This document shows positions 12,707-39,792 of a stretch of DNA of 42,638 nt, piece after piece. The notes under the pieces were generated by a model. It ran no database searches. It was not told the origin of the DNA and saw nothing but the letters and a program-made list of their open reading frames with translations. The DNA is from Lentihominibacter faecis (lineage in GTDB: Bacteria; Bacillota; Clostridia; Peptostreptococcales; Anaerovoracaceae), in assembly GCF_014306095.1 (NCBI RefSeq), contig NZ_JACRWC010000057.1, positions 1-42,638 on the forward strand. The letters run 5' to 3'. Position 1 is the stretch's first letter. The number at the start of each line of letters is the position of its first letter. The translations under genes and the position numbers were made by a program.

Positions 12707-12722
12707 GATGTCAGCTCCTTTG

Positions 12723-13487: not shown

Positions 13488-13527
13488 GTTACTACCAACC
13501 TTTCCTCATTAAAAAGAGATATTTCTT

Positions 13528-19570: not shown

Positions 19571-20452
19571 CTAAATATTCTTCCTCTTCCGCTGAAACCG
19601 CCACTGCCCTAACAGTTCCAGTCCCATGGGCAGAAGCAGGAACGCTCCATAGATGCCGTAGAACACATAGGACCAGAAGGTCACCCGGTTCCAGATGATC
19701 TCCGGGTCGTAGTGGACCCGTGTCTGATCCAGCATCAAAGCCGCTGCCAGTCCGCCAAGACAGGCAGACAACACTATGACCAGGCTGCGATCCCGATTGT
19801 CGAATCGATAAATGGAATACGCCGTCCGCCCTCGGAGGCCGCATCCCCGGCTCTTCATGGAAAATCCGCTTTCGAAAAAACTTTCCAGCATCCAGGTGAT
19901 CAGGATCGACAACTCCCGTACTCCATTTTTCATTCGCTGCCAGAGGCTTCCCTGGTGCACGCCTTTACCCAATCCCCGCCGAGCCGTTTCGGTCTGAGAT
20001 GCTCGCACTCGCACCCGACCGAACATCCGCAATGCCACCGACAGCATGAGAGAAAGCCGCGGAGAGATCTTTCCAAAAAGATAAATGATCTTGTCCACGG
20101 AAAATACCGCCAGAAAGCAGCTGAACATCATCAAAAAAGCCGCCGTCGTCGTCCCCAGCACCAGCCCGTAGACGATGGATTCCAAGGTGATTTCGTTACC
20201 GATAAAATCGGTCGCAAGATCCGTCACTCCAAAGTGATTATAAGACGCATACACCCCGGCATACAGCAGGATCAGAGGCACCAGGCACAGATCGAAGATC
20301 AATCCGCGCTTTCCTCGCAGCTTCACCGACCAGGCAAAGGATGCCGCAAACGAAATAGCCAGGAAAACCGGATGACGAAACAGAATGATCCCTGTCAGCG
20401 CTGCCGCAAAATATATCAAATTGATCACAGGATGATAACTGCTGAATTTCAT
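19571..20452 (-). CDS. ECF transporter T component (EcfT), copy 1
   Basis: 293 aa integral membrane protein with about six helices. EcfT couples the two ATPases to the substrate-binding S component. The cytoplasmic coupling region shows the two Arg-containing motifs typical of the family: TARRGLGKG near residue 155 and SMKSRGCGLRGR near 200. GGAG lies before the ATG, 3 bp after the S-component stop. It is the last gene of the riboswitch-controlled unit. A second EcfT (22926-23819) is in the same operon, which is unusual for a single ECF transporter. Confidence 0.9.
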   Translation of the reverse strand: MKFSSYHPVINLIYFAAALTGIILFRHPVFLAISFAASFAWSVKLRGKRGLIFDLCLVPLILLYAGVYASYNHFGVTDLATDFIGNEITLESIVYGLVLGTTTAAFLMMFSCFLAVFSVDKIIYLFGKISPRLSLMLSVALRMFGRVRVRASQTETARRGLGKGVHQGSLWQRMKNGVRELSILITWMLESFFESGFSMKSRGCGLRGRTAYSIYRFDNRDRSLVIVLSACLGGLAAALMLDQTRVHYDPEIIWNRVTFWSYVFYGIYGAFLLLPMGLELLGQWRFQRKRKNI

Positions 20453-20455
20453 AAT

Positions 20456-21196
20456 CTACTCCGCTTCCATAAGTCCATACTTGACTTTGATGCGATCCAG
20501 TTTTTCGATCATCGGATGCGCCAGAATAAGCAGGGTCAGAAATACCGCCGCCCCGTGCACAGCATTGAACGGCAGCCCCGACAGATACACCGCTCCCACC
20601 GCCTCTGTATTGATCACTGAACTCATGGTAAACAATGTACACGTGTCCAGGATCGGTCCAATGAGAACCAGGATCATCCCGCCGCCGATGAGTGCTGTCA
20701 CAAGCCGCCTTCCGCCAGTCATCACGCCCGCTCTGCAAAGGTATCCCGCCAAAAGCCCTGCCAGCCCGAAGGCGAACATCTGCCACGGCGTCCACGCTCC
20801 CTGGCCGAATATGAAATTGCTGACAAAAGCACTGATGCTTCCGGTCATAAAACCGGCCTGCGGACCCAGAGCCATACCGCAGATCATGACGATCCCCACA
20901 ATAGGTTTGAACTGCGGAAACATAATAAACGCTGCCCGCGAAGCCACAGCGATCGCACACATCACAGCGATCAGCACCATTTCCCTCGTCTTGGGTCTGC
21001 GTCTCTCGAAACTGAGCCAGAATGCCGCAACAGCGCACAACAAAACCAGCATACTGGTAAGATAATATTTCCGATCACCCATCTGCCAGGAAAGCAGCAG
21101 CACTGCCGGAATCCCGATGATCACAAGTCCCAGCGCGATCCACTGTTTCACAGACCTGCGCCCCGCCCAGTTCTCTTTTATCGATTTTTCCTGCAT
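20456..21196 (-). CDS. ECF transporter S component, probable corrinoid specificity
   Basis: 246 aa with six or more hydrophobic segments and a short basic N-terminal extension. Features of S components are visible: MVLIAVMCAIAVASRAAF (residues about 73-90, the T-binding AxxxA-like helix), IVGIVMICGMALGPQAGF and FGQGAWTPWQMFAFG. S components bind the vitamin and topple in the membrane during transport. Specificity cannot be read from the sequence; placement in a cobalamin-riboswitch operon points to cobalamin or another corrinoid, in the sense of the CbrT/CblT systems. Its start overlaps the end of the ATPase gene by 19 bp. Confidence 0.85.
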   Translation of the reverse strand: MQEKSIKENWAGRRSVKQWIALGLVIIGIPAVLLLSWQMGDRKYYLTSMLVLLCAVAAFWLSFERRRPKTREMVLIAVMCAIAVASRAAFIMFPQFKPIVGIVMICGMALGPQAGFMTGSISAFVSNFIFGQGAWTPWQMFAFGLAGLLAGYLCRAGVMTGGRRLVTALIGGGMILVLIGPILDTCTLFTMSSVINTEAVGAVYLSGLPFNAVHGAAVFLTLLILAHPMIEKLDRIKVKYGLMEAE

Positions 21197-22953
21197 AGCT
21201 CGATCACATCCTCTACATTGACCGCATTTTGAAATATGTGACGGCTCATGCGGTTTGCCGCCGTCGTGTAAAAGCTGTTGCGTGCAAAGAATTTCTCCGG
21301 TGTGTTAACCGTCACGATACTCCCGTCAAAGAACATCCCCGTCAGATCTGCGTACCGTGCGCAGAATTCCACATCGTGAGATACCATAACGACGGTTACG
21401 CCCTCTGTCTGCAAACGCTTTAACACTCTCGCAAATTTCTGTTTAAAGAAGCTGTCCATACCCTTGGTCGGTTCATCCAGCAATAATATCTTCGGTTCCG
21501 TCAGCATAACCTTGGCAAGAGCTGTCCTCTGCTGTTCCCCACCGGAAAGATCATAAGGATGGCGATCCAGCAGGTCATCGATTTCACAGAGTTCCGCGAT
21601 CTTCAGAATCTGCTCTTCTTCGGAAGCTGCGCTCCGGTCTGCTGCTCCGTTTGCTGCACGTCCGTCGCACATTTCCAGCAGTTCCTCTCTCACCGTCTTC
21701 TTCACGAATACGCTTTTCGGATCCTGAGGCAGCATGGCCAAAGTTCCAGCAAAAAGTTCCCCGCCTTTATATTTATCCAGACGTTTCCCTTCGATCCAGA
21801 TCTTGCCGCGGTACGGCCTGCAAACACCGCAAACACTCTTCAGCATAGTGGATTTCCCCGTGCCGTTTCCTCCGACTACTGCAAAGATGCTGCCCTGGGG
21901 GATCTCAAGATCCACGCCTCGCAGCACGTCCGGCGTATCCTTTTCATAACGGAACCAGACTTCCTTCATGACGATGGATAATGGGGAATTTTCCAGCTCT
22001 CCCTCTGATTTATGACGCCCCGAAACTTCGATCTCCTGCACCAGCGACTCCGGATCTCGTCCAGCAAAAATACCGCTTAAAAAGCTGCGGCCTTCTCTCA
22101 CGGTAAGAGGGCAGTTTTCTACCGCTACGCCACCGGTCCCATAATACACCTGCACCGGTGCCGGCATGGCCGTAAACATCTCGTGCTCCCGTCCTTGCAG
22201 AAAATCGCAGACCTGTCTCGGCGTACCATCCGTCAGGATCTGCCCCTGATCCATGACGACCACCCGGTCGGCCGCATGGTAGATATCTTCAAGCCGGTGC
22301 TCCGTGATCAGTATGGTTGTTCCCAGCTCCAGGTTTATCTTGCGGACAGTGTTGAGAAAGTCCGCCGCTGCGATGGGATCCAGCTGGCTTGTCGGCTCGT
22401 CCAGGATCAGTACGTCCGGCTGCATGGCCATGATGGACGCTAGATTCAGCAGCTGCTTCTGCCCTCCGGAAAGCTGACCCACATCTTTACAAAACCAGTC
22501 CTGTATCCCGAAATAGCTGGCCATTTCCGCCACTCGAAGCCGCATGGTCTTCTGATCCATCCCCAGGCTTTCCAGTCCGAAAGCCAGTTCATGCCACACC
22601 TTATCGGTCACGATCTGAGCGTCCGGATCCTGCATGACGTAGCCGATCCTGGCCGCCTGCGTCCGCTGATCGGATTTCTCAAGGGGTTTGCCATGAAACA
22701 GTATTTTCCCTTCTCGTTTTCCATGAGGCGTCAGAACCGTCTTGCAGTGTCGCAAAAGAGTCGTTTTGCCGCAGCCGCTTTTGCCGCACAGCAAAACATA
22801 TTCCCCGTCCTCTACCGTCAGATCGATATCCTGCAAAGCCTTCGGCGTATCAAAATATCCCGGTGCGCCGGAGTGCTCCCGATCGCCTTCGGATGCTCCG
22901 CCCGGTGCTCCCGGATAAGAAAAACTTAAATTTTTGATCTCAAAACATGCCAT
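21178..22953 (-). CDS. ECF transporter ATPase, fused EcfA-EcfA'
   Basis: 591 aa carrying two full ABC domains. Domain 1: Walker A GKSGCGKTTL near residue 58, signature LSGGQKQLL near 165, Walker B VLILDEPTSQLD near 185. Domain 2 (from about 325): Walker A GGNGTGKSTM, signature LSGGEQQRTA, Walker B ILLLDEPTKGMD. Separate EcfA and EcfA' are more common; fusion fixes a 1:1 pair. It powers vitamin uptake with EcfT and the S component. GGAGG lies upstream of the ATG, which overlaps the end of the second EcfT gene by 28 bp. Confidence 0.95.
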   Translation of the reverse strand: MACFEIKNLSFSYPGAPGGASEGDREHSGAPGYFDTPKALQDIDLTVEDGEYVLLCGKSGCGKTTLLRHCKTVLTPHGKREGKILFHGKPLEKSDQRTQAARIGYVMQDPDAQIVTDKVWHELAFGLESLGMDQKTMRLRVAEMASYFGIQDWFCKDVGQLSGGQKQLLNLASIMAMQPDVLILDEPTSQLDPIAAADFLNTVRKINLELGTTILITEHRLEDIYHAADRVVVMDQGQILTDGTPRQVCDFLQGREHEMFTAMPAPVQVYYGTGGVAVENCPLTVREGRSFLSGIFAGRDPESLVQEIEVSGRHKSEGELENSPLSIVMKEVWFRYEKDTPDVLRGVDLEIPQGSIFAVVGGNGTGKSTMLKSVCGVCRPYRGKIWIEGKRLDKYKGGELFAGTLAMLPQDPKSVFVKKTVREELLEMCDGRAANGAADRSAASEEEQILKIAELCEIDDLLDRHPYDLSGGEQQRTALAKVMLTEPKILLLDEPTKGMDSFFKQKFARVLKRLQTEGVTVVMVSHDVEFCARYADLTGMFFDGSIVTVNTPEKFFARNSFYTTAANRMSRHIFQNAVNVEDVIELCRKNR

Positions 22954-23819
22954 CGCATTTCCTCCACTACATCAACTGCGACCGGAATACTTAAAAATAC
23001 AAACCAGCAGATGCTCCCGATCCAAAGCCACGGATCATCGTATCCTGACACCAGCAGTTCCGGTGTGTAGGATGCACGTGTCCCGCCTCGGAGCACAGCC
23101 GCAAGGATCCCCATCATAAGCAGGATCATCAGGCAAACCGTCAGTCTGTCCCGCTTCACAAAGGAATAGATGGAAAACGCGCTTCGCTTTCCGCTTCCAT
23201 AGCCCCTGCTCTGCATACTGTCCGCCGTGATCACTCCTCCTTCCAGTGCCCAGGACGTCAAAGCCGAAACCACCGCAAACGACGGCAGGAGTTTGCTTTG
23301 CAGCGAAGATCCAGTTTCCATCCGTCCGATACACCTGCGGGCCGTTGTGATCTGACGCGCCTTTCGCTGAAATCCCGGCACCATCCGAAACACCATAGTA
23401 AGGATCATGGAGATCACGGGACTTTTTCGCCCGAATACGAACATGAATTTATCGCTTGTCATGGTTCTGTTATAAGATGCGAACCACAGGATCACCGCTG
23501 TGAGCATACATCCCAGCGCCATGCCGTAATACAGGGCTTCCAGCGTGTAAGGCCGCTGTCCCAGATAGAACAAGGCCCTGTCGCCTCCGGTGTTGAGAAG
23601 CGGATTGATTGCACTGACCACCACGAAGACCGGGCTCATGCCAACGATCGTCCGAAGCCCCTGCCGCCCTCGGACCTGCAGATAATACACGGCCGCAAGC
23701 ACCAGGGAACAGATCAAAAACGCCGGATGCACAATCAGCACCGTAAAAAATACGGTGCCGATGTAAAATATGAAATTGACTTGCGGGCTGTACCCCGAAA
23801 ATGCATCCTGTCTATTCAT
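22926..23819 (-). CDS. ECF transporter T component (EcfT), copy 2
   Basis: 297 aa, several membrane helices (FIYIGTVFFTVLIVHPAFLI near the N-terminus) and the coupling motifs TTARRCIGR near residue 158 and SMQSRGYGSGKRSAFS near 205. It is clearly homologous to the EcfT at 19571 but divergent. Two T proteins flanking one ATPase fusion and one S protein may form an asymmetric transporter, or one may serve S components encoded elsewhere. It starts 12 bp after the cysteine-rich gene. Confidence 0.9.
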   Translation of the reverse strand: MNRQDAFSGYSPQVNFIFYIGTVFFTVLIVHPAFLICSLVLAAVYYLQVRGRQGLRTIVGMSPVFVVVSAINPLLNTGGDRALFYLGQRPYTLEALYYGMALGCMLTAVILWFASYNRTMTSDKFMFVFGRKSPVISMILTMVFRMVPGFQRKARQITTARRCIGRMETGSSLQSKLLPSFAVVSALTSWALEGGVITADSMQSRGYGSGKRSAFSIYSFVKRDRLTVCLMILLMMGILAAVLRGGTRASYTPELLVSGYDDPWLWIGSICWFVFLSIPVAVDVVEEMRWHVLRSKI

Positions 23820-23831
23820 GGATCCATCCTA

Positions 23832-24158
23832 TCAGATTTTTTCCGGACTGTCTACCGGCTCCTTTTCCTGCGCCAGCACCACCAGTTCACCGAAGCGTGA
23901 AGTGATATAATCGTAGGCATTGTGACTGTGAGGGATCAGACAATCGGTGCAGTCTTTGACCCCTTTATAGTAGGTAAAATTACCGCCGCAGTCCTCGCCC
24001 AGAGCATAGAGAGGGCAGTAGCAGAAGAGGCAGTTGAAGTCTTCTTCCGCCATACCGCCTTTCAGCCGGTGACACGGGAAGTATTCGCATTGTCTGTGAC
24101 TGAAAAACTTGAAATTCTCTGTTTTAGGCGGTTCATACCCGCCGGTTTTACTACTCAT
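23832..24158 (-). CDS. Cysteine-rich small domain protein
   Basis: 108 aa, soluble, with eight cysteines in tight groups: QCEYFPCHR, FNCLFCYCPLY, EDCGG and KDCTDCLIP, plus His residues, which predicts metal (zinc or iron-sulfur) binding. It fits the 'cysteine-rich small domain' family, which in other genomes occurs next to or fused with cobalamin-biosynthesis enzymes. That supports the corrinoid reading of this operon. The ATG overlaps the stop of the 2851-aa gene by 8 bp, with GAGGGG just upstream. No enzymatic role is known; cofactor handling at the membrane is a guess. Confidence 0.8.
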   Translation of the reverse strand: MSSKTGGYEPPKTENFKFFSHRQCEYFPCHRLKGGMAEEDFNCLFCYCPLYALGEDCGGNFTYYKGVKDCTDCLIPHSHNAYDYITSRFGELVVLAQEKEPVDSPEKI

Positions 24159-27100
24159 AAAATCCCCTCTTGTTTCTCCGCTTTCTCATGACGATAATGG
24201 CGATCAGGATCGCCGCTGCGATAGCTCCTGTGATGATCCACGGCATCACGTCGCGGGCTGCCTGTGCTCCCAGCAGGGAATCAATGGACTGATCGGATCC
24301 TGCGATCCCATACAGGGAGAAGTCGGATGCTTCAAACTCGATGGTGCCTCCTGCCGAATCCACGTGACCCTCGATGAGACGGATCTTGCCGCTGTCAGCG
24401 ATATATACGATGACCGGAGTCTTATAGTTTCCTATGCTGACCATCGGCATCTTGACGCGGATCAGACCGCTCGGATGCCACTCGCTGTTATCCAGCGTGT
24501 TGATGAAGTGGATATCGTACAGGGTGAACAGTTCGCTGTTATCGCCCAGCACGTCCTGCACCTTAGTCTTTTGTTTCTCACTTGCCGTCTTCGGCGTCGC
24601 CACCAGCTTGATGTACCACGGCAGGTTTTCTGCACTGGTAGCTCTCACATCGATACCGGTCGATTCATCGTAATGATACATGCTGCCCAGGTTCTGTGTG
24701 ATCTCTGTAAATGCAGTCCAGGTATCTGTCGCCTCGATGGCTTTCTTTTCCGATACGGAAAGGGCATTGTAGGCTTTATACGCATCCAGGATCTGCCTGA
24801 TCTGATCGTCAGTATACTCCTTCGCATTCTGCGGGAGGTTCGCATTGACGACAGCATCCAGCTTGCCCTGCACCGCCTTTGCAGCTTCCGTCATCTTGCC
24901 AAGCTTGATAGTAGCTTTCTTCGTGATGGATCGGGTCGTACCGGAAGCTGCCAGAGAGCTGCCGGAAGCCAGGGTATCCTTCTTCGGATCCTTTGCAGAA
25001 TCTCCACCGTTTACCACGGTTTTCTCTATGATCTTAGACATCGTCGTTACGTCGCTCATATCGTACAGAGACGTCTTCCCGGCCTTCAGCCGATACCAGG
25101 AGGCTAGCGCATAATAGGCCTGTTCCGTGGCCAGGCCATTAGACGATGTGGTATCGCTCTGGCTGTGCTTGAAGCCGCCCTTATCATTATAGAAGGTCGC
25201 CAACGCATCCAAGGTGCTGTAGCCGTTCTTGATGAACCGGCCGTCGGACGCCGGATCGATGCCCAGGCTTGTCAGTGCAACGATGACCTGTGCCACCGAT
25301 TCCGCATTAGCAGTGCCCCACGATGTATATCCGCCGTTAACTTCCTGCATCTTGGACAATCGCTTCAATGCATCATCTACTGCCGATTTTACTTTCGCAT
25401 TACTGCTATAATATGGAGCCAGTGCCTGGATCGCCATGGCCGTCATATCTGCGTCAGCACCATTTCCATTGACATTCCAGCCTCCGTCGCTCAACTGTGC
25501 CGCCAGGATGGCGTCGATGAGAGCTTCCCGCGTAGTCTGCGTCTTACCTGCTGCCGCCTTCGGGATCTCGTAATCATGAGAATCCAGAGCGATCAGTGCA
25601 AAGATCGGTCCGTTGATTCCCTGGCTCTTCACGTAGTCCAGATCGGCTAATGCTTCCAGCAGATCATATCCAGCAACGTCACTCGGATCTTTGCCGATGG
25701 ACGTCAGCGCCAGGATCATACGGGAGTTCTCCGTAGACTTGCTGTCGCTGATGGTGGAAGAACCTTTTTTCTTCACATATTGATATGCTGCCTGTGCGTA
25801 CTGCTCCGCCAGCGTGTCGCTGATGGATCCGGAACGTGCCAGTCCCAGTGCGACCCATTCACCGCCGGATGTTCCTGCCGTCAGCCCTGCCTTGGATGCC
25901 AGAGCTGCCTGACTGCTTCCCGTCTCTTGATAGATCTTATCAAATTCTTTCTGGTTAGTCTTCTGCAGCTGTGCGATCTTAGCCACGGCGGCATCCAGCT
26001 TCGTCTTCAGGTTCTTGGAAATCAGAGCTTTAGCTTCATCGGAAAGTGCATTATAGGCGCTCTGTGCCCGACCTACAGCCGCCGCATCGTCCAGCGATAG
26101 CTTATCCACATCCGGAAGAGCTTCGATCATGGCCGCAACTTCATCCGCAGCTTCCTGAGGAGTCTTGTTGCCCGCCCAGTCGATCGTGCGATAATCGTCC
26201 ACGTAGAAGAACTGCATCACATCGCCGTCATTTAATGTAACAGCGCTCATGTAGTCCACGAATTTACCGTTGATGGTGTACATCCATCCGCTGTACGGTC
26301 CGTTGGACAGCTCGCTTAACGTAACTTTTTCTTTTGCATTGCTAATGGACGATACGTAGCTGTTTCCAGACATTTCATAGTCCAGGCCGGCATCTCCCAG
26401 GGCCTTTTCGAAGAGATCCTGTGCCGTCGCACCTTTCTTCAATGTATAGGCCGTCGAACCGATCCAGGTCACATCTCCTGTATGCTTTCCTTTCTCACCG
26501 TGAACTGTATCTCCTGTTAATCCAAAGCTTACGCTGATCTCGGTCTTGTCCGGATCTTCCGGCTTCGTCGTGCTTCCGCCCTCAGAAGAGCCTTCCGTCT
26601 GCCATTTTAAAATCGGATATCCGCCATTCAGTTTTTCCGTATCTTCTGCAAAGTACTCCGTACCGATCTGCTGATTCAGTTTCTTCACGAATCCGGCTTT
26701 CTTCATGGTTTCCGAAGAAGCTCCCATCGCCGTTTTATCCGTTGCCGCTGCCTGGGATTCAGCCAGGTAGAAGCTTCCCGTTGTCTGACTGATATAGGCA
26801 GATCCTGTATAGCTGCCTACCGAACCGCCTGTGTTGATACCGGACGCTACGCTTCCGATATTGTAGCAGCCCTGCGGCACGGCGCAGACCGTCGCTTCAC
26901 CGGCCAGACCGCCCAGATTCTTTTTACCGATTACGGTTCCTGTATTGTAGCAGCCTTCCACGACTGCGTAGTTGGACATCAGTCCTACGATACCGCCAGC
27001 CTGCTGGCTCTTGCCCTCCGTTCCGACGCTTCCCGTATTGATACACTTGCTGATAGTTCCATAGGATACAGCGCCTGTGATACCACCGATACTCTGTGTA

Positions 27101-30100
27101 CCAGCTACCGATGCTGTATTGCGACATTCCGTCACCTTGGCGTTGAGCCCGGTCTGACCTGTGATACCGCCGACGTACATACCCCCGGAAACCGATCCAC
27201 TATATTCACAGTAGATGATCTTACCTTCCAGATATCCAGCGATACCACCGGTGGAGAGACTATCGCCTGTCACCTTAATATCTCCGGAAATCTTCAAGTT
27301 TTTAACAGTTCCCTTGCCGTCTATATTTCCAAAGAATCCCTGCTCGTTCTTTTCTCCGCGGATCACCATGCCTGTGACTCTGTGATTCTGTCCGTCGAAA
27401 GTTCCCTTGTAGGAGTTCTTGTCGTTGCCGATCGGGTACCAGTTGCCGGCAGTTCCATCAGCAGTACTCAAGGTAATATCTGTCGTCAGCGCTCCGTTGA
27501 TCGCAGTATTGCCACCGTTGACGGCGTTGACGAACCACTTCAGTTCCTTCTCACTGGAGATTTGGTGCACGCCGGATTTCACTGCCGGTTCGCTGCACTG
27601 ATCCTCCGGCCAGATGCCTGCCGACGCGCCATCCTTGATGGTGCCTGTCTTCGCTTCAACATAGCCTGCCAGACTTCCGGTCACGCGAATGGAAATTTCC
27701 TTGCCCAGATCATCGTCGGTCAGTTTATATGTTTCATTAGTCGCACCATCGATGGCTTTTGATCCGCGATACCACTGGTACTTTGGTGCTTTTTCGCTAC
27801 CCTTGTAAACAGCCGTCAAGGTGTGTCCCGCGACTTCCTGTCCCTGGATCTTGACCGTTCCCGACATGCCCTGCACCTTGCCGGACTCTGCCGTCTTGAT
27901 GCCGTAGTGATCCCCGTCCATGCACTTGACGTAAACCTTGACGCCGACCATATCGTTCGGAACGGTAAAGCTTTCTCCAAAGCCCAGGATCTGTTCCTCT
28001 CCGCCCCAGTCTCTGTACCAGACGAACATCGGATCCTGGCCGTTACCGTCAGTGTAGGAGGCCTTGATAGTTTCTCCCGCCTGAACGTCTTCCGGCAGCG
28101 TTACAGTTCCTGTCAGAGTCTCCTTGCTGCCCGCCAGCGAAGCCAGATTTCCTGCCTTGTTTTTAATGGTTCCTGCGTCGGCTTTATTGGCGCTGGAGCT
28201 GTCCGCATCTGCGATAGCCAGGGAGCTGAGATACCAGCAGTCGGTACCTGCTGTACCTCCGCCTATGACACCGCCTACATTGAAGACTTCTCCCGTCTCC
28301 GTATCGGCATAAGAACCGGCTACATCCCCCAGGTTATACAGGCTTTTGGCCGTAGAACCCGTCGTATTGCAACCCAGACATCCGCCTACATAGCCGCCTC
28401 GGCTGACTACGTTTCCTGTATTGTAAAGGCTGCTGACACTGGCGTTGTTCCAGCCAACGACGCCGCCCGCATAAGCTCTTTCTGCTGACGAGCTAACGAT
28501 TACATGTCCGCTGTTGGCAGACTTGCTCACGTTTGCCGCTTCACTCTTTACAGCATTGGTATTAGCCGCCGCGATACCTCCTGCAAAGGTGCTTCCGGCA
28601 GTGATCACAGCCGTGTTGCTGCATCCCGACACAGAACCTTCGTTATATGCCACGATACCTGCCGCATAGGATTCCCCGGTCACTGCACCCGTATTGTGAC
28701 AGTCTTTGATGACGCCATCCTTGGTGTTGTTTCCGGCGATCCCGGCAATTTTGTTTCCACCCGTTACCGTCACGTTGGAAGTGATCTCCTCCAGCGTTCC
28801 CGCATTGGTTCCTGTCAATGCGGCTGTTTCATCTCCGCCCTTGAGGATACCTGCCAGGGTAAGGTTCTTCACCGTTCCCTTGTTGTACGGGATCAGGCCC
28901 TTACCGTTTTTCAGGTAAAGGTTTTTAATGGTGTGTCCCGCACCGTCCAGAGTTCCTGCAAAGCCCGTATCTGCAGTCTGTCCGCCGATGCCGGTCCAAA
29001 CGTTGTTGTTGAGATCCAGATCTGCTGTCAAAACAGCTTTCAGATCAGTGGAATCCTGTGCAGCTTTTTCGGCAAACCATGCCAGTTCTGCCGGCGTTCC
29101 GATCTGATATACGCCGTCCTTCTGCTGCGGCACAACCTTGGCCGCTTCGCCCTGCCATCCGTTGTCGTCCTTTTCCGGATCGTCGGATTTCACAGTCCCG
29201 TTCTGCCATGCCAGCACCGGATATCCGCTGTTGATCCCATTGGTATCTGCTGCAAAGCCGTCGCCCAGGTCTTCGCTGGTGAGGGCTTTCAGCTCGTCGG
29301 AAGTTTTGGCGGTTGCCGTGCCGTTTTGGATCGTGCAGCCATTCAGATTGCCGATTGCCTCGTATTCGGCAGAATAGAATACGTTTTGGAGCGTTTTGTT
29401 GCCACCAGTCCATTCTAATCTTCCAGCCACGCCGCCTTTTGTCGAGGCTTCCACCAGACCTGCATTATATGCATTCTTCAGCGTGCCATATCGAAACGCC
29501 CCAACGATGCCTCCTGCAACGCCCTTTGAAGCAGAAACACTTCCAGTATTATAGACATTCTGTATTCCTCCTCCATTATATAGATGCCCTGCGATACCTC
29601 CAACATTTGCTACTCCGGTAATTCTTCCGGTATTATAAGAATCCGTCAACGCATTGGATGCGTTGGACTGCACACGTCCAGCGATGCCCCCTGCATAACC
29701 ACTCGTTCCGGTTCCCTGTACCTCCCCGGCATTGGAACACTGAGCCAGAGACATATTGCTGTCCAATTCTCCAACAATCCCTCCGACATAATTTGCTCCG
29801 GTCACGCGAGTCGTCGCTGTAGTATGACAGTTTGTGATATTCCCCTTGGAATCTCCTACAACTGCTCCCGTATAATTCTGTGTCGATGTAATGACACTGT
29901 CTGAAATCGTTACATTTTTGATCTCACCTGCTGCACCAACGTAACCAAACAAACCTGTATTGGCCGCTGTACTGTTGATATACAGTCCCGAAATGGTATG
30001 TCCATTTCCATCGAAATTTCCTGTATACGCCTTAGTTTTGTCCATTCCGATCGGCGTCCACTTGTACTTCTGGGAAGTCGCATCAGATCCTGACACATCT

Positions 30101-32706: not shown

Positions 32707-33986
32707 GCTTTTTCTCCTTGTTCCCCTTTACATTCCCGTGCAGGTATAGCTCCAGACGACGCATCGCCATCCTTCAGCTTATAGCTGGAGCATCCGTAAT
32801 TCGGGAACCATCCGTTGACCTTGTACATCCAGCCCGACTGGCTGCCGCAGTCGAATTCATACAGATGATTGATCCCTTCCACATAATAGCTGCCGTACAT
32901 CGGCGTATAGGAATATTCCAGCTGGATCCCCGTGTAGGAGCAGGCTCGTTTCAGCACGTCGAAGACCGTTTCTCCATCTGCGAATTCCACCTTGCTGGTG
33001 GCCAGGATCACGCCGTTTGCCGGCACGTATTTATTCTTGCCTTCCTTTAGATCCCCCATGTGTTTCAGGATGGAATCGCAGCGGATCTGGATGGTGCAGG
33101 TCTTGACTTTGGAAGAGCTGCCGCTTTTTCCGGATTTGCTGCCGGACACTGATGAACTTCCGGACTGACTGCCGTCGGACGACATGATCTCTTTATACAG
33201 AGCGTCTTCTTTCGCTGCCGCCTCCTGTGCTTTCTGCTTCTCAGCAGTCCGTGTTTCCTGTACTTTTTTCAGATCCTTGGCCGCAAAGCAAAGATCGTCT
33301 TTACTGTCGCATTTTAACGCCTGTGTCAGCACAAAATCGTCGAAAGATTCAGCCTTGAGAGTCGCGATCTCTGCACTCAGATGCCCTTCGTTATCGTGGG
33401 CGATCAGCAGGGATTCTCCAGCTTTCACATCTTTTTCCGTTCCGTCCTCGATGCTTACGCTGAGGCTTCCTCTCATAACGCTGACCGTCGCACTTCCCTT
33501 TTGCTGCGAGGCTGCAAAGGTTACTGCGTCCCCGGATTTTGCCGCATGCACGGTGTTTTTGTCCAGCGCTACATCAAATGTTTTCCCCGGATCTTTCCCA
33601 TCTGCAAAGATCTCGCCTTCATTCAGCGTAAAGGCTACGTCGTTCTTCTCGCTGTTTTTTACGGACAGTTCCGCATTTTCATTTAAGGTAAGCGCGTTGT
33701 GGCCACTTACTTTCGCCGTTACCGTGGAACCTGTTTCGGTCTCTATGATATCTCCGGCCTTCAAAGGTACTTTTTCCTTTAAGCTGTACCCTACGCCGCT
33801 TCGCTCAATATTGGCAACTCCGCTGATTTCCTTCGTGACCACCGCGGAGCTGGAATCACCACTGCCGAACCATCCCCTGATATGACCGACCGCCATGACT
33901 GAACAAAAGGCAATCACGGCGATCATGGCGATCATTAGGATGTTAAACAGCTTTTTATTTTTCTTTTTCTGCTGCTGCGTCTGCAT
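32703..33986 (-). CDS. Membrane protein with FecR-like and DUF4430-type domains
   Basis: 427 aa from the ATG at 33984-33986, chosen because AGGAG sits 7 nt upstream; an ATG 18 bp earlier lacks a site. N-terminal signal-anchor (LFNILMIAMIAVIAFCSVMA), then a FecR-like beta domain (about 45-185: GVANIERSG, ALTLNENAELSVK, VSVMRGSLSVSIEDG), a charged helix, a Ser/Gly linker, and a transcobalamin-C-terminal-like domain (about 295-405: VFDVLKRACSYTGIQ, GWMYKVNGWFPNYG). It should sit outside the cell tethered by its N-terminus, possibly passing ligand from the surface proteins to the S component. FecR domains usually sense or bind cell-surface ligand complexes. Four-base overlap (ATGA) with the 2851-aa gene indicates coupled expression. 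Confidence 0.85.
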   Translation of the reverse strand: MQTQQQKKKNKKLFNILMIAMIAVIAFCSVMAVGHIRGWFGSGDSSSAVVTKEISGVANIERSGVGYSLKEKVPLKAGDIIETETGSTVTAKVSGHNALTLNENAELSVKNSEKNDVAFTLNEGEIFADGKDPGKTFDVALDKNTVHAAKSGDAVTFAASQQKGSATVSVMRGSLSVSIEDGTEKDVKAGESLLIAHDNEGHLSAEIATLKAESFDDFVLTQALKCDSKDDLCFAAKDLKKVQETRTAEKQKAQEAAAKEDALYKEIMSSDGSQSGSSSVSGSKSGKSGSSSKVKTCTIQIRCDSILKHMGDLKEGKNKYVPANGVILATSKVEFADGETVFDVLKRACSYTGIQLEYSYTPMYGSYYVEGINHLYEFDCGSQSGWMYKVNGWFPNYGCSSYKLKDGDASSGAIPARECKGEQGEKA

Positions 33987-34021
33987 TTTTCTCTCCTGAT
34001 TCATCGATATAACATTTTTAT

Positions 34022-37000
34022 TTAGAAACGGTCATCCCGTCTTTGTGCTGCTGCGTAGATGTAAACTGCCGCCACCATGGAAGCCAGCATCAGCATCATC
34101 CACACATAAAGCTGTGCATCGTCTCCTGTCCTGGCGCTGCCGCCGGAAGCACTTCCGCCGCCACTGCCGTCAGACCCACCGTTTCCGCCTGCTCCAGCCT
34201 GCAGTGTCGTCTTGTTCTTATTAAGATCCCGGATCGCGTTGTCTTTCTTCGGATCGTCCTTTTTCATATCATCCTTGCTCGGATCGTCCGGATCTACCAC
34301 CTGACTGTCGCCGATGGTGATGTCCGCATGAGCGGACACATAATAATCAAACGGAGCTGCTGTTACATCAGCACTATAGCTGCCTGCTTCAGAAATCTTA
34401 AAGGTAACGATACCGTCCTTATCGGTCGTACCCTCTGCGACCTGCTTGCCGTTGCTGTCCGCGAGGACGACTTTGCAGTTTTCCTGCGGAGAACTTACCG
34501 GCTTCCAGTTTGCATCATACCCGCTTCTCATCAGCGTCAGCGAAACCTCACCCAGCTCCTTCTGCTGGATCTGGGAATCTACGAAATACAGATACGTGTC
34601 AGAATAATTTTGAGTGTCACCATACTGATACACAGTCACGACATCGCCTGTTTTGATCGGGGAATTATTGCAGAGCGTCGCACTCCCATTTAAATCTGCC
34701 GGCGACTGATCATTGAGCAGATATCCTATCGCACCAGTCTCTATTCCCCAGAATTTCTGGATCCATCCGCCGTTGATAATCAAATATTTTCCTGGATCTT
34801 TCCCAAAGTCATCGCCGTACATCTTCTGATGTGCCGCTACCATAGCGTCCAAAATAGTCACGGTGTTTTCAAATCCTTCCGGCTTGGAGAAGCCTGCCTT
34901 GGCCGCCATATCGGAAGTTACTTTTACTGTATAGGATTTCCCCGGTTTTCCGGAATCCATATTGATACGAACGCTTACGGATGCTTCTTTTGCGTTCTGC
35001 AGAGCCTTCGCATCCTTTACAGCCTGCTGCAAATCAGCGATGGCTGCATCCTGCTGCGCTTCTGTAGCGTCTTTATCGTCAGCTACTGCCTGCGCTCTGG
35101 CGATGGCTTCTGCCAGAGCAGCCTTTGCACCCTTCTGGTATTCGCCCGGCTGAGTGCCTTCTACCATGCTATCGTAAAGCTTCTGGGCTGACTCGATCTC
35201 TGCCAGCAGAGCTTCGGCAGACGCCTTGGTGCCCTTGACGGTCACAGTTACGGAAACTTCCTGCTTGTAAAGCTTCTGCAGCTTCTCATTGTTCGGATGG
35301 TCCTTGGCGAACTTACCATATTTCTCACTGGAAAGGAGCGAGGAAATCGTGATCTGCGTCGAGTTTTCTGGGCGGGTCACCAGCAGATTTTCGTGAGTTA
35401 CGATAGCGTTGTTGGAAGATTTGAACCGATTATACGGCCATCCCGTCTGCCCCAGGGAACCATCCTGGTAATCGTCCGGTATGATGCCTGTACCGGTTTT
35501 ATCGTCAACATTGTACGCCCATACCGGATTCCCCTGCTCATCCAGACTCATTTCACAGAATGCATGAAGGTTACCTGTGATGGAATCCTTGTCCGCATAC
35601 TTGCCGTCGTTGATGCCGTCAAAGTAATGCTCCTTCGCTTTTTCCATCATGGCCAGTTCCTTATCCAGCTCTTTGTCTGTGATCATGCTGACTGTAAGCG
35701 GGATCTTCTTAGAAACGGTCACGCCGTCTCTCGTAAAGGTAACGATCAGATTAACGGTTTCCTTCTCGTTCTGACTTGCAAACCGGTCTACCGCTGCACG
35801 GTAGCCATTGATTTTGAGGATATCTTCCTTGTCTGTAGTTACTGTAATTTCCTTGTTGGCGAAAACGTCTTTGTTGTTTTCATCTTTGATCCTCGTGTAT
35901 CTTGGCAGCTGGATATCGCCTGTTACATTGGCAGGATCCACCTTCTCCTTTGTATTAGGATCCGTCAGGCTGTCCGCTGTGTAATATTTGTCCAGAATCG
36001 CCTTCAGTTCATCTTCCGTCGGCTTGGCAGCCTGCTTGCCCTTGACTGTGACTTTGAAAGTCTTGGTGATGGTACCGAAATCGCCGACTTTTTCCACGTA
36101 CTCATTGAGATCAGCTTCGTTCGCCTGGAACGTAGCCGTAAGAGTAACTACGCGGTCTTCACTCGGCTGTGTCACCGTTCCCTTCTTCGGGTCGATCATG
36201 GAGTCATATCCCGTCTTGTCGATGGAAATGAGTGAAGGATCCGAAGACGTCCAGGTCACCTTGGACCAGACATTCCTGGCGGAAGTCCCCATGCACTGCG
36301 GAAGGGTCAGATCCGTGGTTACTTCGTCTTGTTTCAGGTTGGCATTTTTGATCGTGTCCCATGTAAGGGAGTCTGCCTCCTTCTGCATCTGAGATTTGAA
36401 ATAGTCTCTGTCCCAGCAGATGGTCGCACGCGTTTCAGCGGAAACGGCTTCCGCATTGCCTGCTTTGAATACAAAGATATTTCCTGTTACCGTAGTACTG
36501 TTATTTCCCCACTGATCGAGGGCGCCGTTCTTATAGATGATCGTGCCATCATTTTTAATGTAATTCGTATCACCAGACGTTTTCAGTTCTACCGTTACGC
36601 CGTCGGTCGTCAGGTCCGTGTATCCCTTTATCTGGCGGAGCACCAGATCCGTGATCTTTTTATCCTTCGAAAAATCCGGTCTGAGAACGCTGGTTTCTTT
36701 ATCAAACTTTGCTTTAATAGCGTCCACTTTCGCCTGATCTGCAGGATCGACAGTCTTCGTGGATTTCAAGGTGATCGTTTTCGTAATGTCTTCGTTATCA
36801 CCGCTCGGAGTATACGTCCCTGTCGCTTTTTCATACCCGTCGGCGGTGATCGTATAGGTGTATTTCGTGGATTTGTCCAGTTTGTATGATCCGTCTTTTT
36901 CCGGTTCTACTGTGATTTCATTTGTGACCCAGTTCCAGTCGTCATCGTAATCGGAATCTTCATATGTTACTTTGATTGCAGCATCCGCAATATCCTTATC

Positions 37001-38179
37001 ATTGCTGTCGACCGGCTTGAATGTAACGTTATATTGGGAGATGTTCTTCGTCATCGTGATGTCGATAGTCTGGTCACCTGACGGGATAAAGCTCACGCTG
37101 TTTATCGAAGTGTAATTAACAGCCTCTACCGTGTAATTATATGTCACGCCGTTTTTTAGCTTATAACTTCCGTCACTTTGCGGACTTACGGTATCATAGT
37201 ATCCCTGTTTGACCTTCACCGTCGCTCCATCAATGTTCTTTCCTGAAGAATCCTTGATGTTGAACTTAATGGTGCTGTATGCCGCCTTAGTCAGCGGGAT
37301 CTTCACCTCTCCGCCCTGCTTTGGCTGGAACTCATCCCTATAATCCAGATAATCATCAGCAGTTATTTTCAGAGTGTATTTCTTATCCTTGGATAAGTTT
37401 TTATAAACACCGTTGGTTGGATAAACAGTGCTCCAGTTTTCTTCTAATGTAATGCTTGCACCCGAAATTTCTGCACCAGTTTCACTATCGACTGGTTTAA
37501 AGCTGACATCGAAGGTGGATGGAGTCTCCACTTCACCGGTGCCCTTTATCGTAATCAGGAACTCCTGCGATGCCAGCGCTGCAGAATTGTCCATGGATGC
37601 AGTTTCTCCATTGATCATATCATCCCCTGTGCCGCTTGGAAACAGCTTTAATGTCACCTTAAAAGTCTTGTCTGCATCAGGCTGATTGATATTGATGCTT
37701 CCAGGGTTTCTTGCGGTCCAGCTTCCGGATCTCGGCTCAATCGTATTTCCAACATCTTTCTGGTCGTTGATATACCATCCGCTCTTATAAAGACTTGTTC
37801 CTGTCCCGCTTTCATACGCAAGACGAAAACTCGATTTACTCGATGGTATGATCGCATGACAAGTATCCTTTTCCTGTGTGCTGCCAGTGATAATTTTCGT
37901 AGTGGCAGACACATACTTATTCTGCAAATATGTCATCGCAGCTTCTGCATCCGCTGAGTTTCCCTCAGCATCCTGCGTCAGCCAAATGCCGTTCTCGGCA
38001 CTGCTTCCATTTCCCGCTAGAATTTCTATGGTTCCGGCAATGGCTTCTGAGAATCCTCCTGCGCGAGCATTCAGTTCCACGCCATAAGCGGCCGTCGGCA
38101 GCGCAGCAGTTATGACCATAACTGCCGTCAGCACGATCCCCAGCGATCGCTTCCATAATTTTTTCGGTGATTTGTTCAT
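34022..38179 (-). CDS. Transcobalamin-C-terminal-like surface protein, first gene of the B12 operon
   Basis: 1385 aa from the ATG at 38177-38179 (AAGGAG 6 nt upstream); a longer frame to 38239 runs into the riboswitch terminator and is rejected. Signal peptide (SLGIVLTAVMVITAALPTA), a unique N-terminal domain to about 220, three to four PEGA-like beta modules with DGSYKL motifs (about 225-480), Ig-like modules of the atrophied Big type (TWTSSDPSLISID; about 600-970), a FIVAR helical module (about 988-1062) and a DUF4430-like domain (about 1065-1203: LIINGGWIQKFWGIETGAIG). A last beta module precedes ARTGDDAQLYVW, a membrane helix and QRRDDRF. It lacks the alpha/alpha barrel. Directly downstream of the cobalamin riboswitch, it probably binds corrinoid or partners the 2851-aa protein. 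Confidence 0.85.
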   Translation of the reverse strand: MNKSPKKLWKRSLGIVLTAVMVITAALPTAAYGVELNARAGGFSEAIAGTIEILAGNGSSAENGIWLTQDAEGNSADAEAAMTYLQNKYVSATTKIITGSTQEKDTCHAIIPSSKSSFRLAYESGTGTSLYKSGWYINDQKDVGNTIEPRSGSWTARNPGSININQPDADKTFKVTLKLFPSGTGDDMINGETASMDNSAALASQEFLITIKGTGEVETPSTFDVSFKPVDSETGAEISGASITLEENWSTVYPTNGVYKNLSKDKKYTLKITADDYLDYRDEFQPKQGGEVKIPLTKAAYSTIKFNIKDSSGKNIDGATVKVKQGYYDTVSPQSDGSYKLKNGVTYNYTVEAVNYTSINSVSFIPSGDQTIDITMTKNISQYNVTFKPVDSNDKDIADAAIKVTYEDSDYDDDWNWVTNEITVEPEKDGSYKLDKSTKYTYTITADGYEKATGTYTPSGDNEDITKTITLKSTKTVDPADQAKVDAIKAKFDKETSVLRPDFSKDKKITDLVLRQIKGYTDLTTDGVTVELKTSGDTNYIKNDGTIIYKNGALDQWGNNSTTVTGNIFVFKAGNAEAVSAETRATICWDRDYFKSQMQKEADSLTWDTIKNANLKQDEVTTDLTLPQCMGTSARNVWSKVTWTSSDPSLISIDKTGYDSMIDPKKGTVTQPSEDRVVTLTATFQANEADLNEYVEKVGDFGTITKTFKVTVKGKQAAKPTEDELKAILDKYYTADSLTDPNTKEKVDPANVTGDIQLPRYTRIKDENNKDVFANKEITVTTDKEDILKINGYRAAVDRFASQNEKETVNLIVTFTRDGVTVSKKIPLTVSMITDKELDKELAMMEKAKEHYFDGINDGKYADKDSITGNLHAFCEMSLDEQGNPVWAYNVDDKTGTGIIPDDYQDGSLGQTGWPYNRFKSSNNAIVTHENLLVTRPENSTQITISSLLSSEKYGKFAKDHPNNEKLQKLYKQEVSVTVTVKGTKASAEALLAEIESAQKLYDSMVEGTQPGEYQKGAKAALAEAIARAQAVADDKDATEAQQDAAIADLQQAVKDAKALQNAKEASVSVRINMDSGKPGKSYTVKVTSDMAAKAGFSKPEGFENTVTILDAMVAAHQKMYGDDFGKDPGKYLIINGGWIQKFWGIETGAIGYLLNDQSPADLNGSATLCNNSPIKTGDVVTVYQYGDTQNYSDTYLYFVDSQIQQKELGEVSLTLMRSGYDANWKPVSSPQENCKVVLADSNGKQVAEGTTDKDGIVTFKISEAGSYSADVTAAPFDYYVSAHADITIGDSQVVDPDDPSKDDMKKDDPKKDNAIRDLNKNKTTLQAGAGGNGGSDGSGGGSASGGSARTGDDAQLYVWMMLMLASMVAAVYIYAAAQRRDDRF

Positions 38180-38224
38180 TGCTTCTCCTTCCCATAATAA
38201 AATTGACATCTCCTCCGAGATGCC

Positions 38225-38271
38225 AAAAAACGTACACAAAGCTACGGTCTGACCGACCGTATGTTAAACGT
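38225..38271 (-). terminator. Riboswitch-controlled terminator
   Basis: On the minus strand a TACGGTC/GACCGTA stem (7 bp, 5-nt loop) is extended by imperfect pairing out to ACGT/ACGT and followed by TTTTTT (38225-38230). It lies between the aptamer and the first gene, so high cobalamin probably ends transcription here. Confidence 0.7.
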
Positions 38272-38295
38272 CGTCCTACCTCAGAAGACTTTTGT

Positions 38296-38505
38296 TTTAA
38301 GCGTGCAGGTCTCCCGACTTAATCCTTGACCGTCAGAACGCCTTCCCAGAGAGCTTCGCCGGCTTATAGCCTTTACAGAAATAAAGCCCGCTCCCCAGTG
38401 ACTGCAGGATGCTTTGCAGCAAACCTCGCGTGTTCCTCCGCAGATATCACGGTTGCTGAGACACAGTGCCGGACTCACACCGGCTTCCGAAGTGCCCACT
38501 CACGA
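38296..38505 (-). promoter_or_regulatory. Cobalamin riboswitch
   Basis: Minus-strand sequence contains the conserved aptamer blocks in order: AAGCCGGTGTGAGTCCGGCACTG, abbreviated here as GCCGGTGTGAGTCCGGC, then CAGCAACCGTGAT, CACTGGG, GGGAAGGCG and, near the 3' end, the B12-box end AAGTCGGGAGACCTGC (38303-38319). These match the RF00174 class in sequence and order over about 205 nt. It regulates the whole 38179-19571 unit, repressing it when cobalamin is plentiful. Confidence 0.93.
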
Positions 38506-38521
38506 TATTTTCTTCAATTAC

Positions 38522-38550
38522 ATAATAGGGGATAATACTCTAGTTGTCAA
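38522..38550 (-). promoter_or_regulatory. Promoter of the riboswitch operon
   Basis: TTGACA (38545-38550), 17-bp spacer, TATTAT (38522-38527) on the minus strand; transcription would begin about 10 nt before the aptamer. Confidence 0.85.
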
Positions 38551-38604: not shown

Positions 38605-39792
38605 CTATTTTATTGATTCGATTTTTTCCAGCAGCTTCGGCGTCATAAAATTAGCGATAATCAAAGCTGCAACACCCGCAGTTACTTTCCCCAAAATCAT
38701 CGGCACCAGCATCTCCTGATCGACTCCTGCTGTAAATCCCAGGAAGTCACCGAATACAGCGAAGCTGCCTGTTCCGAAAGCCAGGCTCACGATTTTCCCT
38801 TTTGATCCCATCTTTTCCAGCGAAGTGACCAAGGGAATCAAATTCGCCAAACCTCCAATCATTCCAGCACAGTCATCTTTTTTCAGTCCAAATCGGCTTC
38901 CGATCCCTCCCAGCTCTTTTCCAAAAGTGCTCGTAATCCATTTCATTAAAGGGAACGCCCCCGCCAGAACGATTCCGATTTCTCCACAAACGAGAATCCC
39001 TGATTCCAGACCAGTTAGTCCCGTCGTTTCATCCGGGATCGCCATGGCACAAAAGCCCGGCAGTAAAATCCCTGTAACCTGTTGAAAAACAGCAATTACA
39101 ACAAGCCCTGTCGCCAAACCCGTGATCACCGTTCCCACAGCACTAAAACTCCTGATTACTTGGTCAGGAAAAAACCACAATGATACAATAACCAAGCTTG
39201 CAATCACTGCAATCGGCAGCGTATTAAATAATAATGCATAAAGCGAAAGCTTATACACGGTCAACTTCATAGCGAAACCACCCACAAGGCATCCCAGCGG
39301 AACAGATACAAGGCCTGCCAGAATTCCCGCCGCCAGAAACGGTCTGTCCTTGACTTTGATCAAGGAAAACGCCACAGGAATCGTAAATGTGATCGTAGGA
39401 CCCATAATGCTTGCTACGATAAGTCCATTGAATTTTCCCACCGCTTCATTTTCTGCAAGCGCAGTCGCCATAGGATATCCTCCCATATCAGCACCAAGTA
39501 AAATACCTGCCACAACCGAGGGATCCGCTCCGATCGCATGGGCAATCGGTGTCACCAGCGGTCTGATCCATTGCGAAAGACAGGGTGCTATCGCAATGAT
39601 CGCCGCTACCGCCATGGCCAGCGTCCCCATCGTCTTAAAACCTTCTTCGAATTCTTTTCCGTACCCCAGCTTATTCCCCCGAATGTAGTCAACTCCACCG
39701 ATCACCATAAAAATCATCATGATCATCATAATAATGGAATTCGCCGAAATATGTGTTATCCAATCAGTTAGTGATCCCAGAAACAATTGCAT
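38605..39792 (-). CDS. eutH: Ethanolamine transporter EutH
   Basis: 395 aa, about ten membrane helices, over the full length of the EutH family. Features include SIIMMIMMIFMVIGGVDYI at the N-terminus, ILLGADMGGYPMA near residue 97 and LVCGEIGIVLAGAFPLMKW near 270. EutH moves ethanolamine across the membrane. Ethanolamine ammonia-lyase needs adenosylcobalamin, so this gene fits beside a B12 uptake operon, although no other eut gene is present. AGGAG precedes the ATG. It lies upstream of the riboswitch promoter on the same strand with no strong terminator between, so some read-through is possible. Confidence 0.9.
   Translation of the reverse strand: MQLFLGSLTDWITHISANSIIMMIMMIFMVIGGVDYIRGNKLGYGKEFEEGFKTMGTLAMAVAAIIAIAPCLSQWIRPLVTPIAHAIGADPSVVAGILLGADMGGYPMATALAENEAVGKFNGLIVASIMGPTITFTIPVAFSLIKVKDRPFLAAGILAGLVSVPLGCLVGGFAMKLTVYKLSLYALLFNTLPIAVIASLVIVSLWFFPDQVIRSFSAVGTVITGLATGLVVIAVFQQVTGILLPGFCAMAIPDETTGLTGLESGILVCGEIGIVLAGAFPLMKWITSTFGKELGGIGSRFGLKKDDCAGMIGGLANLIPLVTSLEKMGSKGKIVSLAFGTGSFAVFGDFLGFTAGVDQEMLVPMILGKVTAGVAALIIANFMTPKLLEKIESIK

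What the first reader, a model, noticed from the sequence alone, without database searches (positions are those of the whole stretch)
19571..38550. B12-riboswitch-controlled surface corrinoid capture and ECF uptake system
Seen: consensus promoter, cobalamin riboswitch and terminator, then eight tightly packed minus-strand genes (gaps under 40 bp or overlaps) coding for three extracytoplasmic proteins with transcobalamin-C-terminal-like domains, a cysteine-rich small protein and a full ECF transporter. Known: Bacteroides use surface lipoproteins such as BtuG to take cobalamin to BtuB; mammals use intrinsic factor and transcobalamin; ECF transporters import cobalamin in some Bacillota. Inferred: here a Gram-positive cell uses giant transcobalamin-like surface proteins to harvest corrinoids for an ECF importer. 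I know of no described system with this make-up.
Basis: partly seen in the sequence, partly recalled or inferred. Interest (0 to 1): 0.92.

Follow-up and report, generated by a model that had tools for sequence, protein, structure and literature searches.

The report
Bacterial transcobalamin-like vitamin B12 uptake operon
A Clostridia-type bacterium carries a vitamin-B12-switched set of genes for large surface proteins related to our own B12 carriers plus a membrane importer; the general idea was predicted in 2007, and the operon seen here gives it a concrete, testable form.

Summary
A promoter-like site, a cobalamin riboswitch (RF00174, 34.8 bits, cut-off 31.5) and a terminator-like hairpin precede eight packed minus-strand genes. 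Two of three extracytoplasmic proteins carry DUF4430, the transcobalamin C-terminal domain, above Pfam's cut-off; the third has at most a remote version. The 2851-aa protein adds an alpha/alpha toroid; the pair, folded together, finds cobalamin-bound transcobalamin first in the PDB. The S component is nearest to CbrT, a proven B12 S component. In 99 class-level genomes, S component and DUF4430 co-occur: 41 both, 3 S only, 9 DUF4430 only, 46 neither.

Best explanation: transcobalamin-like surface proteins catch corrinoids and hand them to a CbrT-type ECF importer. Ligand and hand-over are inferred.

Burroughs et al. 2007 (PMC1796856) already predicted B12 scavenging by such proteins in operons with CbiO/CbiQ genes. 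Added here: the riboswitch link, the CbrT assignment, frequent splitting of toroid and DUF4430 into neighbouring genes, small riboswitch-linked DUF4430 lipoproteins, and a compact Latilactobacillus curvatus version. A new variant of a predicted kind for which I found no experimental test.

The parts
38522..38550 (-). sigma-70-type promoter-like site TTGACA-17-TATTAT
   Evidence: 11 of 12 matches
38309..38488 (-). cobalamin riboswitch aptamer (RF00174)
   Evidence: 34.8 bits, gathering 31.5, E 2.6e-5
38203..38226 (-). terminator-like hairpin with T-rich tail, the likely expression platform
34022..38179 (-). extracytoplasmic protein 1 (1385 aa from ATG; 1405 aa from TTG 38239): N-terminal hydrophobic segment, CarboxypepD_reg and aBig_2 domains, C-terminal ARTGDD plus membrane segment and basic tail (sortase-like, recalled)
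34556..34819 (-). divergent DUF4430-like domain in protein 1 (tentative)
   Evidence: no Pfam hit; hhalign probability 73, E 3e-5 against the DUF4430 profile
32703..34004 (-). FecR + DUF4430 protein (433 aa) with one N-terminal membrane segment; tail appears frameshifted against relatives
   Evidence: FecR 3.9e-8, DUF4430 8e-17
32763..32975 (-). DUF4430 (transcobalamin beta-domain-like) of the 433-aa protein
   Evidence: residues 344-414
24151..32706 (-). giant surface protein, 2851 aa: N-terminal signal-like segment, weak CarbopepD_reg_2 and GLUG matches (both under Pfam's cut-off), DUF4430, alpha/alpha toroid, C-terminal membrane segment
26203..26433 (-). DUF4430 of the giant protein (residues 2092-2168)
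25048..25866 (-). alpha/alpha toroid of the giant protein (residues 2281-2553)
23832..24158 (-). cysteine-rich small protein PF04071 (108 aa)
   Evidence: 8.2e-26
22926..23819 (-). EcfT-like transmembrane protein 1 (297 aa)
   Evidence: own profile and motifs; that profile finds the annotated EcfT of two lactobacilli; no Pfam EcfT hit
21178..22953 (-). fused ECF ATPases A1A2 (591 aa)
   Evidence: TIGR04520 6.1e-99 over cut-off; motifs
20456..21196 (-). ECF S component, nearest to CbrT (246 aa)
19571..20452 (-). EcfT-like transmembrane protein 2 (293 aa)
   Evidence: own profile and motifs; no Pfam hit

Best explanation
A cobalamin-repressed corrinoid scavenging operon. When intracellular coenzyme B12 is low, the riboswitch lets transcription run past the hairpin (inferred from anatomy). 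Surface proteins built from the two halves of a transcobalamin, an alpha/alpha toroid and a beta-grasp DUF4430 domain, catch corrinoids outside the membrane. The membrane-tethered FecR-DUF4430 protein, whose relatives are often encoded directly ahead of the transporter genes, passes the corrinoid to the CbrT-like S component. The fused A1A2 ATPase and the EcfT protein(s) then drive import. The cysteine-rich small protein probably acts on corrinoids inside the cell. Shown here: genes, riboswitch, conserved linkage and predicted folds. Inferred: ligand, hand-over, sign of regulation, role of the small protein.
For: RF00174 upstream. S-component profile: best PDB match 6fnp_A (E 5e-14), next RibU 1e-6; 6FNP is ECF-CbrT, shown to import cobalamin and cobinamide (PMC5997447, passages). 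DUF4430 profile: best PDB match transcobalamin-2 (E 0.086, weak). Two-domain AF2 model pLDDT 88.8; Foldseek rank 1 is cobalamin-bound transcobalamin 2v3n, E 2e-4. Of 36 genomes that I picked, 33 have DUF4430 within 25 kb of the S gene and 20 have an over-cut-off RF00174 within 25 kb upstream on its strand, 0.41 expected for random placing. Of 26 DUF4430 hits elsewhere in those genomes, 6 lie under 3 kb downstream of RF00174, 0.037 expected. In 99 genomes drawn by the tool: S and DUF4430 41 both, 3 S only, 9 DUF4430 only, 46 neither, p 2e-15; same contig and strand under 25 kb in 31 of the 41. In L083 RF00174 is followed by a 140-aa DUF4430 protein and an S-like protein (own profile 2.6e-9). 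CbiC is not found in 28 of the 36 picked genomes.
Confidence: 0.82

Rival explanations
1. The operon takes up a corrinoid precursor or fragment (cobinamide, cobyric acid, a lower-ligand base) rather than complete cobalamin; same mechanism, different cargo.
For: CbrT imports cobinamide as well as cobalamin (PMC5997447, passages). PMC6593275 lists CbrUVT as a B12 transporter (passages), and a review writes 'cbrUVT (cobyrinate diamide uptake)' (PMC8123684, passages). PF04071 genes lie near RF00174 or the S gene in 4 of the 14 picked genomes that have PF04071.
Against: The beta-hairpin of transcobalamin contacts the nucleotide base of cobalamin (PMC1796856, passage), which suggests, but does not require, a complete corrinoid here.
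Confidence: 0.3
2. The ligand is another tetrapyrrole such as heme, or another small molecule; some members of the family have moved away from B12.
For: An ECF importer for heme exists (LhaSTA, PMC7299338, passages). The L. curvatus operon has no RF00174 within the 12 kb read. A reviewer of the 2007 paper warned of ligand diversity (PMC1796856, passage).
Against: The window and many relatives are under a cobalamin riboswitch, and the S component is nearest to CbrT.
Confidence: 0.07
3. The large surface proteins are adhesins or wall-polymer binders that merely share an operon with the importer.
For: CarboxypepD_reg and aBig_2 domains are common in surface proteins (commonness recalled); a LRR/Big_2 surface protein lies elsewhere in the window. 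The 2007 authors suggest that such extra domains tether the protein to the wall.
Against: DUF4430 and toroid recur together and beside this importer while the other domains change; small DUF4430 proteins lie next to RF00174 away from this importer.
Confidence: 0.06
4. The toroid is an enzyme, a class II terpene cyclase relative, acting on a lipid or terpenoid.
For: Best structural matches are drimenyl diphosphate synthase and squalene-hopene cyclase; an Asp-x-Asp-x-Thr stretch is kept.
Against: The last Asp of the DxDD acid motif (motif recalled) is M, I, V, L or T in all 27 aligned rows; the protein is extracytoplasmic, fused to or encoded near DUF4430, and under a B12 riboswitch.
Confidence: 0.03

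Closest known systems
Transcobalamin-like SLBB proteins of Gram-positive bacteria (Burroughs, Balaji, Iyer and Aravind 2007, PMC1796856)
   Same: Secreted or wall-anchored beta-grasp domain, toroid on either side, paralogues in one operon with CbiO-like ATPase and CbiQ-like membrane genes, proposed B12 scavenging
   Different: The passages and sections that I saw do not mention a riboswitch, a CbrT-type S component, FecR-DUF4430 anchors or toroid and beta domain as neighbouring genes; its figure and supplement were not seen
CbrT / CbrUVT cobalamin ECF transporter (Santos et al. 2018, PMC5997447; Rodionov et al. 2019, PMC6593275)
   Same: S component with 6fnp_A (CbrT) as best PDB match; duplicated ATPase (that CbrU is duplicated is recalled)
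   Different: L. delbrueckii CbrT shares a common ECF module; here the module is dedicated, often with two EcfT genes (31 of 63 loci with context on both sides), and comes with surface proteins
Animal transcobalamin, intrinsic factor, haptocorrin
   Same: Two-domain build: alpha/alpha toroid plus DUF4430-type beta domain
   Different: Domain order reversed in the window (beta domain before toroid), with a helical linker between; part of a very large anchored protein
BtuG and BtuH surface B12-binding lipoproteins of Bacteroidetes (BtuH: PMC8941943, passages; BtuG recalled)
   Same: Surface capture of B12 ahead of a membrane transporter
   Different: Feed TonB-dependent BtuB (recalled); [quoted passage not shown]

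Membership tests
Cobalamin riboswitch (RF00174) | covariance model score over gathering cut-off | tested here: met
   34.8 against 31.5 bits; local match 47-167 of 189
Cobalamin riboswitch (RF00174) | ligand-dependent control of the operon | not testable with these tools
   needs RNA or reporter data
ECF transporter | two ATPases with Walker A, signature and Walker B | tested here: met
   both halves of the 591-aa protein; TIGR04520 over cut-off
ECF transporter | EcfT membrane protein with two Arg-containing coupling motifs | tested here: met
   ARRxxG and SRGxG in both T proteins (motif meaning recalled); annotated EcfT of two lactobacilli found by the same profile; no Pfam EcfT hit
ECF transporter | membrane S component | tested here: met
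   PF12822 1.4e-10, PF07155 3.9e-14; six hydrophobic segments
CbrT (cobalamin S component) | closest solved relative is CbrT | tested here: met
   6fnp_A, E 5e-14 with profile, 3e-8 with single sequence
CbrT (cobalamin S component) | binds and transports cobalamin | not testable with these tools
   needs an uptake assay
Transcobalamin-like SLBB / DUF4430 | PF14478 over cut-off | tested here: met
   433-aa and 2851-aa proteins
Transcobalamin-like SLBB / DUF4430 | third copy in protein 1 | tested here: inconclusive
   no Pfam hit; hhalign probability 73
Transcobalamin / intrinsic factor architecture | alpha/alpha toroid joined to the DUF4430 beta domain | tested here: met
   AF2 model and Foldseek rank 1 transcobalamin; toroid alone not specific; order reversed
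Transcobalamin / intrinsic factor architecture | corrinoid bound between the two domains | not testable with these tools
   no ligand docking or assay
Class II terpene cyclase | complete DxDD motif (recalled) | tested here: not met
   position after the second Asp is M, I, V, L or T in 27 of 27 rows

The most novel reading that the evidence does not exclude
ECF importers are taken to need no extracellular binding protein because the S component itself binds the substrate. Here a lineage of ECF cobalamin importers has a dedicated extracellular relay, a 'split transcobalamin': in many genomes the toroid is a surface protein and a DUF4430 half is a separate protein encoded beside the importer, so that the corrinoid may be closed in between two proteins and then passed to the S component. 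The two-domain B12 carriers of animals would then be a fused form of this bacterial pair.
Probability: 0.45. Interest if true: 0.82.

Novelty: new variant of a known kind. Interest (0 to 1): 0.63.

Why it matters
[quoted passage not shown] This operon offers a candidate answer for Clostridia, many of which lack a marker of the corrin pathway, places the 2007 prediction under a B12 riboswitch, and points to a compact Latilactobacillus curvatus version suited to the bench. If true, it shows how a Gram-positive cell catches scarce corrinoids outside its membrane and points to the bacterial form of the animal B12 carriers.

Tried and rejected
Single-sequence AF2 of DUF4430 + toroid gave pLDDT 49 and was not used; a 27-row alignment gave 88.8. 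Putting lone DUF4430 rows into the toroid alignment misaligned them, and some two-toroid proteins misaligned too; lone DUF4430 rows were then aligned apart. The giant-protein search listed 120 of 4598 hits, all 98-100% identical over the region, so L045's protein was used as a second query. Phmmer with the single DUF4430 + toroid sequence finds terpene cyclases, not transcobalamin, in the PDB. VIA-align ranks cyclases and sugar epimerases above transcobalamin for the toroid. NCBIfam names neither of the two surface proteins scanned (433 and 1405 aa) nor the giant protein's DUF4430 piece. Rodionov et al. 2009 (PMC2612444) is not held. Ten paper searches, all used, listed no paper that I recognised as an experimental study of a bacterial DUF4430 or toroid B12 binder; I judged most by title and start of abstract only. 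'cbrS' next to cbrT in L. delbrueckii might be a DUF4430 gene; not tested.

Rows dropped before counts. The 44 genomes were picked by me from the 80 loci (36 with DUF4430, toroid or long flanks; 8 others), so one search is the fairer sample, although its centre genome G006 is one of my own loci. In one search I left out RF00174 hits under cut-off and three DUF4430 rows at or under cut-off. In one search I left out 15 DUF4430 rows (ten that repeat within a frame already counted, one separate frame in G006, four at or under the cut-off; a few other repeats were kept), five S rows (three weaker than 1e-20, two second pieces of genes already counted), and RF00174 rows on contigs without DUF4430 or far from it. 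One search's own list was cut, so riboswitch counts there are lower bounds.
Full report
OBSERVATION. On the minus strand a promoter-like site (38550..38522), a cobalamin riboswitch (RF00174, 38488..38309, 34.8 bits against 31.5) and a terminator-like hairpin (38226..38203) precede eight genes separated by 17, -4, -8, 12, -28, -19 and 3 bp. The first frame is listed from a TTG ahead of the hairpin; the ATG at 38179 behind a ribosome-binding-like site is more likely. The neighbours are a EutH gene upstream on the same strand and a Na/phosphate cotransporter gene downstream.

THE PROTEINS. Protein 1 (about 1385 aa) has CarboxypepD_reg and aBig_2 domains, an N-terminal hydrophobic segment and a C-terminal ARTGDD plus membrane segment. 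Protein 2 (433 aa) has one N-terminal membrane segment, FecR and DUF4430 (8e-17). Protein 3 (2851 aa) has DUF4430 (5.9e-7), a following alpha/alpha toroid and a C-terminal membrane segment. Protein 1 has no Pfam hit for DUF4430; a region of it matches the DUF4430 profile by hhalign at probability 73, so 'three transcobalamin-like proteins' is two firm and one possible. Gene 4 is PF04071 (8.2e-26). Genes 5 to 8 are EcfT-like, a fused A1A2 ATPase (TIGR04520 over cut-off), an S component and a second EcfT-like protein. The EcfT names rest on my own profiles, on motifs, and on two annotated relatives that the profile finds; Pfam has no EcfT hit for gene 5 and none at all for gene 8.

TRANSPORTER. 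The S-component profile matches 6fnp_A best (5e-14), then RibU (1e-6). 6FNP is ECF-CbrT of Lactobacillus delbrueckii, shown by others to import cobalamin and cobinamide (PMC5997447, passages).

CONSERVATION. A scan of genome contigs with the S alignment gave 197 relatives, of which the best 80 loci were kept. With my own profiles 39 of the 80 show a DUF4430-type domain, 25 the toroid, 42 either; 38 show neither, many being short or cut. 23 of the 80 have a DUF4430 gene directly ahead of an EcfT gene. T-AA-S-T is seen in 31 of 63 loci with context on both sides, T-AA-S without a second T in 25; 7 are irregular by my rule. Of 44 genomes that I picked from these loci, 24 have RF00174 upstream of S on the same strand within 25 kb, 20 of them over cut-off. 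All 20 fall among the 36 chosen for DUF4430, toroid or long flanks, against 0.41 expected for random placing, and 33 of these 36 have DUF4430 within 25 kb of S; among the other 8 none is over cut-off. Because of that choice I repeated the test on 99 class-level genomes drawn by the tool (its centre, G006, is one of mine): S in 44, DUF4430 in 50, both in 41, neither in 46 (Fisher p 2e-15, relatedness not corrected), same contig and strand within 25 kb in 31 of the 41; at least 25 of 101 DUF4430 hits lie under 3 kb downstream of RF00174. DUF4430 is not confined to this system: it also rings in the control genomes of Lactococcus lactis and Methanosarcina acetivorans, and 9 of the 50 DUF4430 genomes have no S of this family.

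MINIMAL FORMS. In L083, RF00174 is followed by a 140-aa DUF4430 protein and then a 191-aa S-like protein whose listed start overlaps it (own S profile 2.6e-9, but no Pfam hit and no NCBIfam hit near a cut-off). In L082, RF00174 is followed by a 137-aa DUF4430 protein with a lipobox-like start. In L081 two cassettes of riboswitch, PF04071 gene and 138-aa DUF4430 lipoprotein-like gene stand ahead of riboswitch + FecR-DUF4430 + 2179-aa DUF4430/toroid protein, then riboswitch + T-AA-S-T. In Latilactobacillus curvatus an LPXTG toroid protein (own toroid profile 9e-49), a DUF4430 protein with an N-terminal hydrophobic stretch, EcfT, ATPase and S component form one cluster, with no RF00174 within the 12 kb read. 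A T-AA-S cluster on a Lentilactobacillus kefiri plasmid has no annotated DUF4430 gene nearby.

SPLIT TRANSCOBALAMIN. Of 27 toroid frames (window included), 7 also carry a DUF4430-type domain; of the other 20, 16 have a separate DUF4430 gene in the same locus (frames cut by contig or locus ends are counted as seen, and the whole-genome search shows at least one of them, that of L047, to carry DUF4430 further out). In the listed hits of a protein search with L045's module, toroid and DUF4430-type domains also occur together in one protein. Toroid and beta domain thus travel together as one protein or as neighbours. This suggests, and does not show, that they act together. FecR is found in 5 of 8 relatives' DUF4430 proteins scanned.

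PHYSIOLOGY. CbiC, a marker of corrin synthesis, is found in 8 of the 36 picked genomes, which fits scavenging, though their completeness is not known. PF04071 is found in 14 of the 36; in 4 of these it lies next to RF00174 or the S gene.

PRIOR ART. Burroughs et al. 2007 (PMC1796856; abstract, passages, section 7 part 1 and one reviewer's report read) described Gram-positive transcobalamin-like domains as secreted or wall-anchored, fused to toroids on either side, with paralogues in operons with CbiO and CbiQ genes, usually in bacteria lacking key B12 synthesis enzymes, and proposed scavenging of B12 or precursors.

VERDICT. A real, conserved corrinoid-uptake operon; the function is very likely, the hand-over mechanism is a proposal, and novelty lies in the details rather than in the idea.

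Noticed in passing
32703-32780: The last ~20 codons of the 433-aa FecR-DUF4430 gene differ from the aligned relatives and look frameshifted, removing the last beta strand of its DUF4430; either a real lesion or an assembly error. Copies with the usual ending exist in relatives.
   Followed up: partly
42603-42636: The right end of the window reads like an Illumina Nextera transposase adapter (adapter sequence recalled), an assembly artefact.
   Followed up: no
38605-39792: A EutH (ethanolamine permease) gene lies directly upstream on the same strand; ethanolamine lyase is B12-dependent (recalled). Co-regulation untested.
   Followed up: no
1355-5104: A 1249-aa BspA-type LRR and Big_2 surface protein, not part of the finding.
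   Followed up: no
7482-14853: Thiamine cluster (ThiC, hydroxyethylthiazole kinase, ThiE, HAD) interrupted by DUF169, DUF445, AAA and a weak VWA/CoxE-like gene.
   Followed up: no
L081:14109-16161: Two tandem cassettes of cobalamin riboswitch, PF04071 gene and 138-aa DUF4430 lipoprotein-like gene; the two lipoproteins are identical, a recent duplication or an assembly repeat.
   Followed up: partly
L090:2348-2532: Lentilactobacillus kefiri plasmid: a 71.9-bit cobalamin riboswitch on the opposite strand ahead of a DUF5776 surface protein, next to a T-AA-S cluster.
   Followed up: partly
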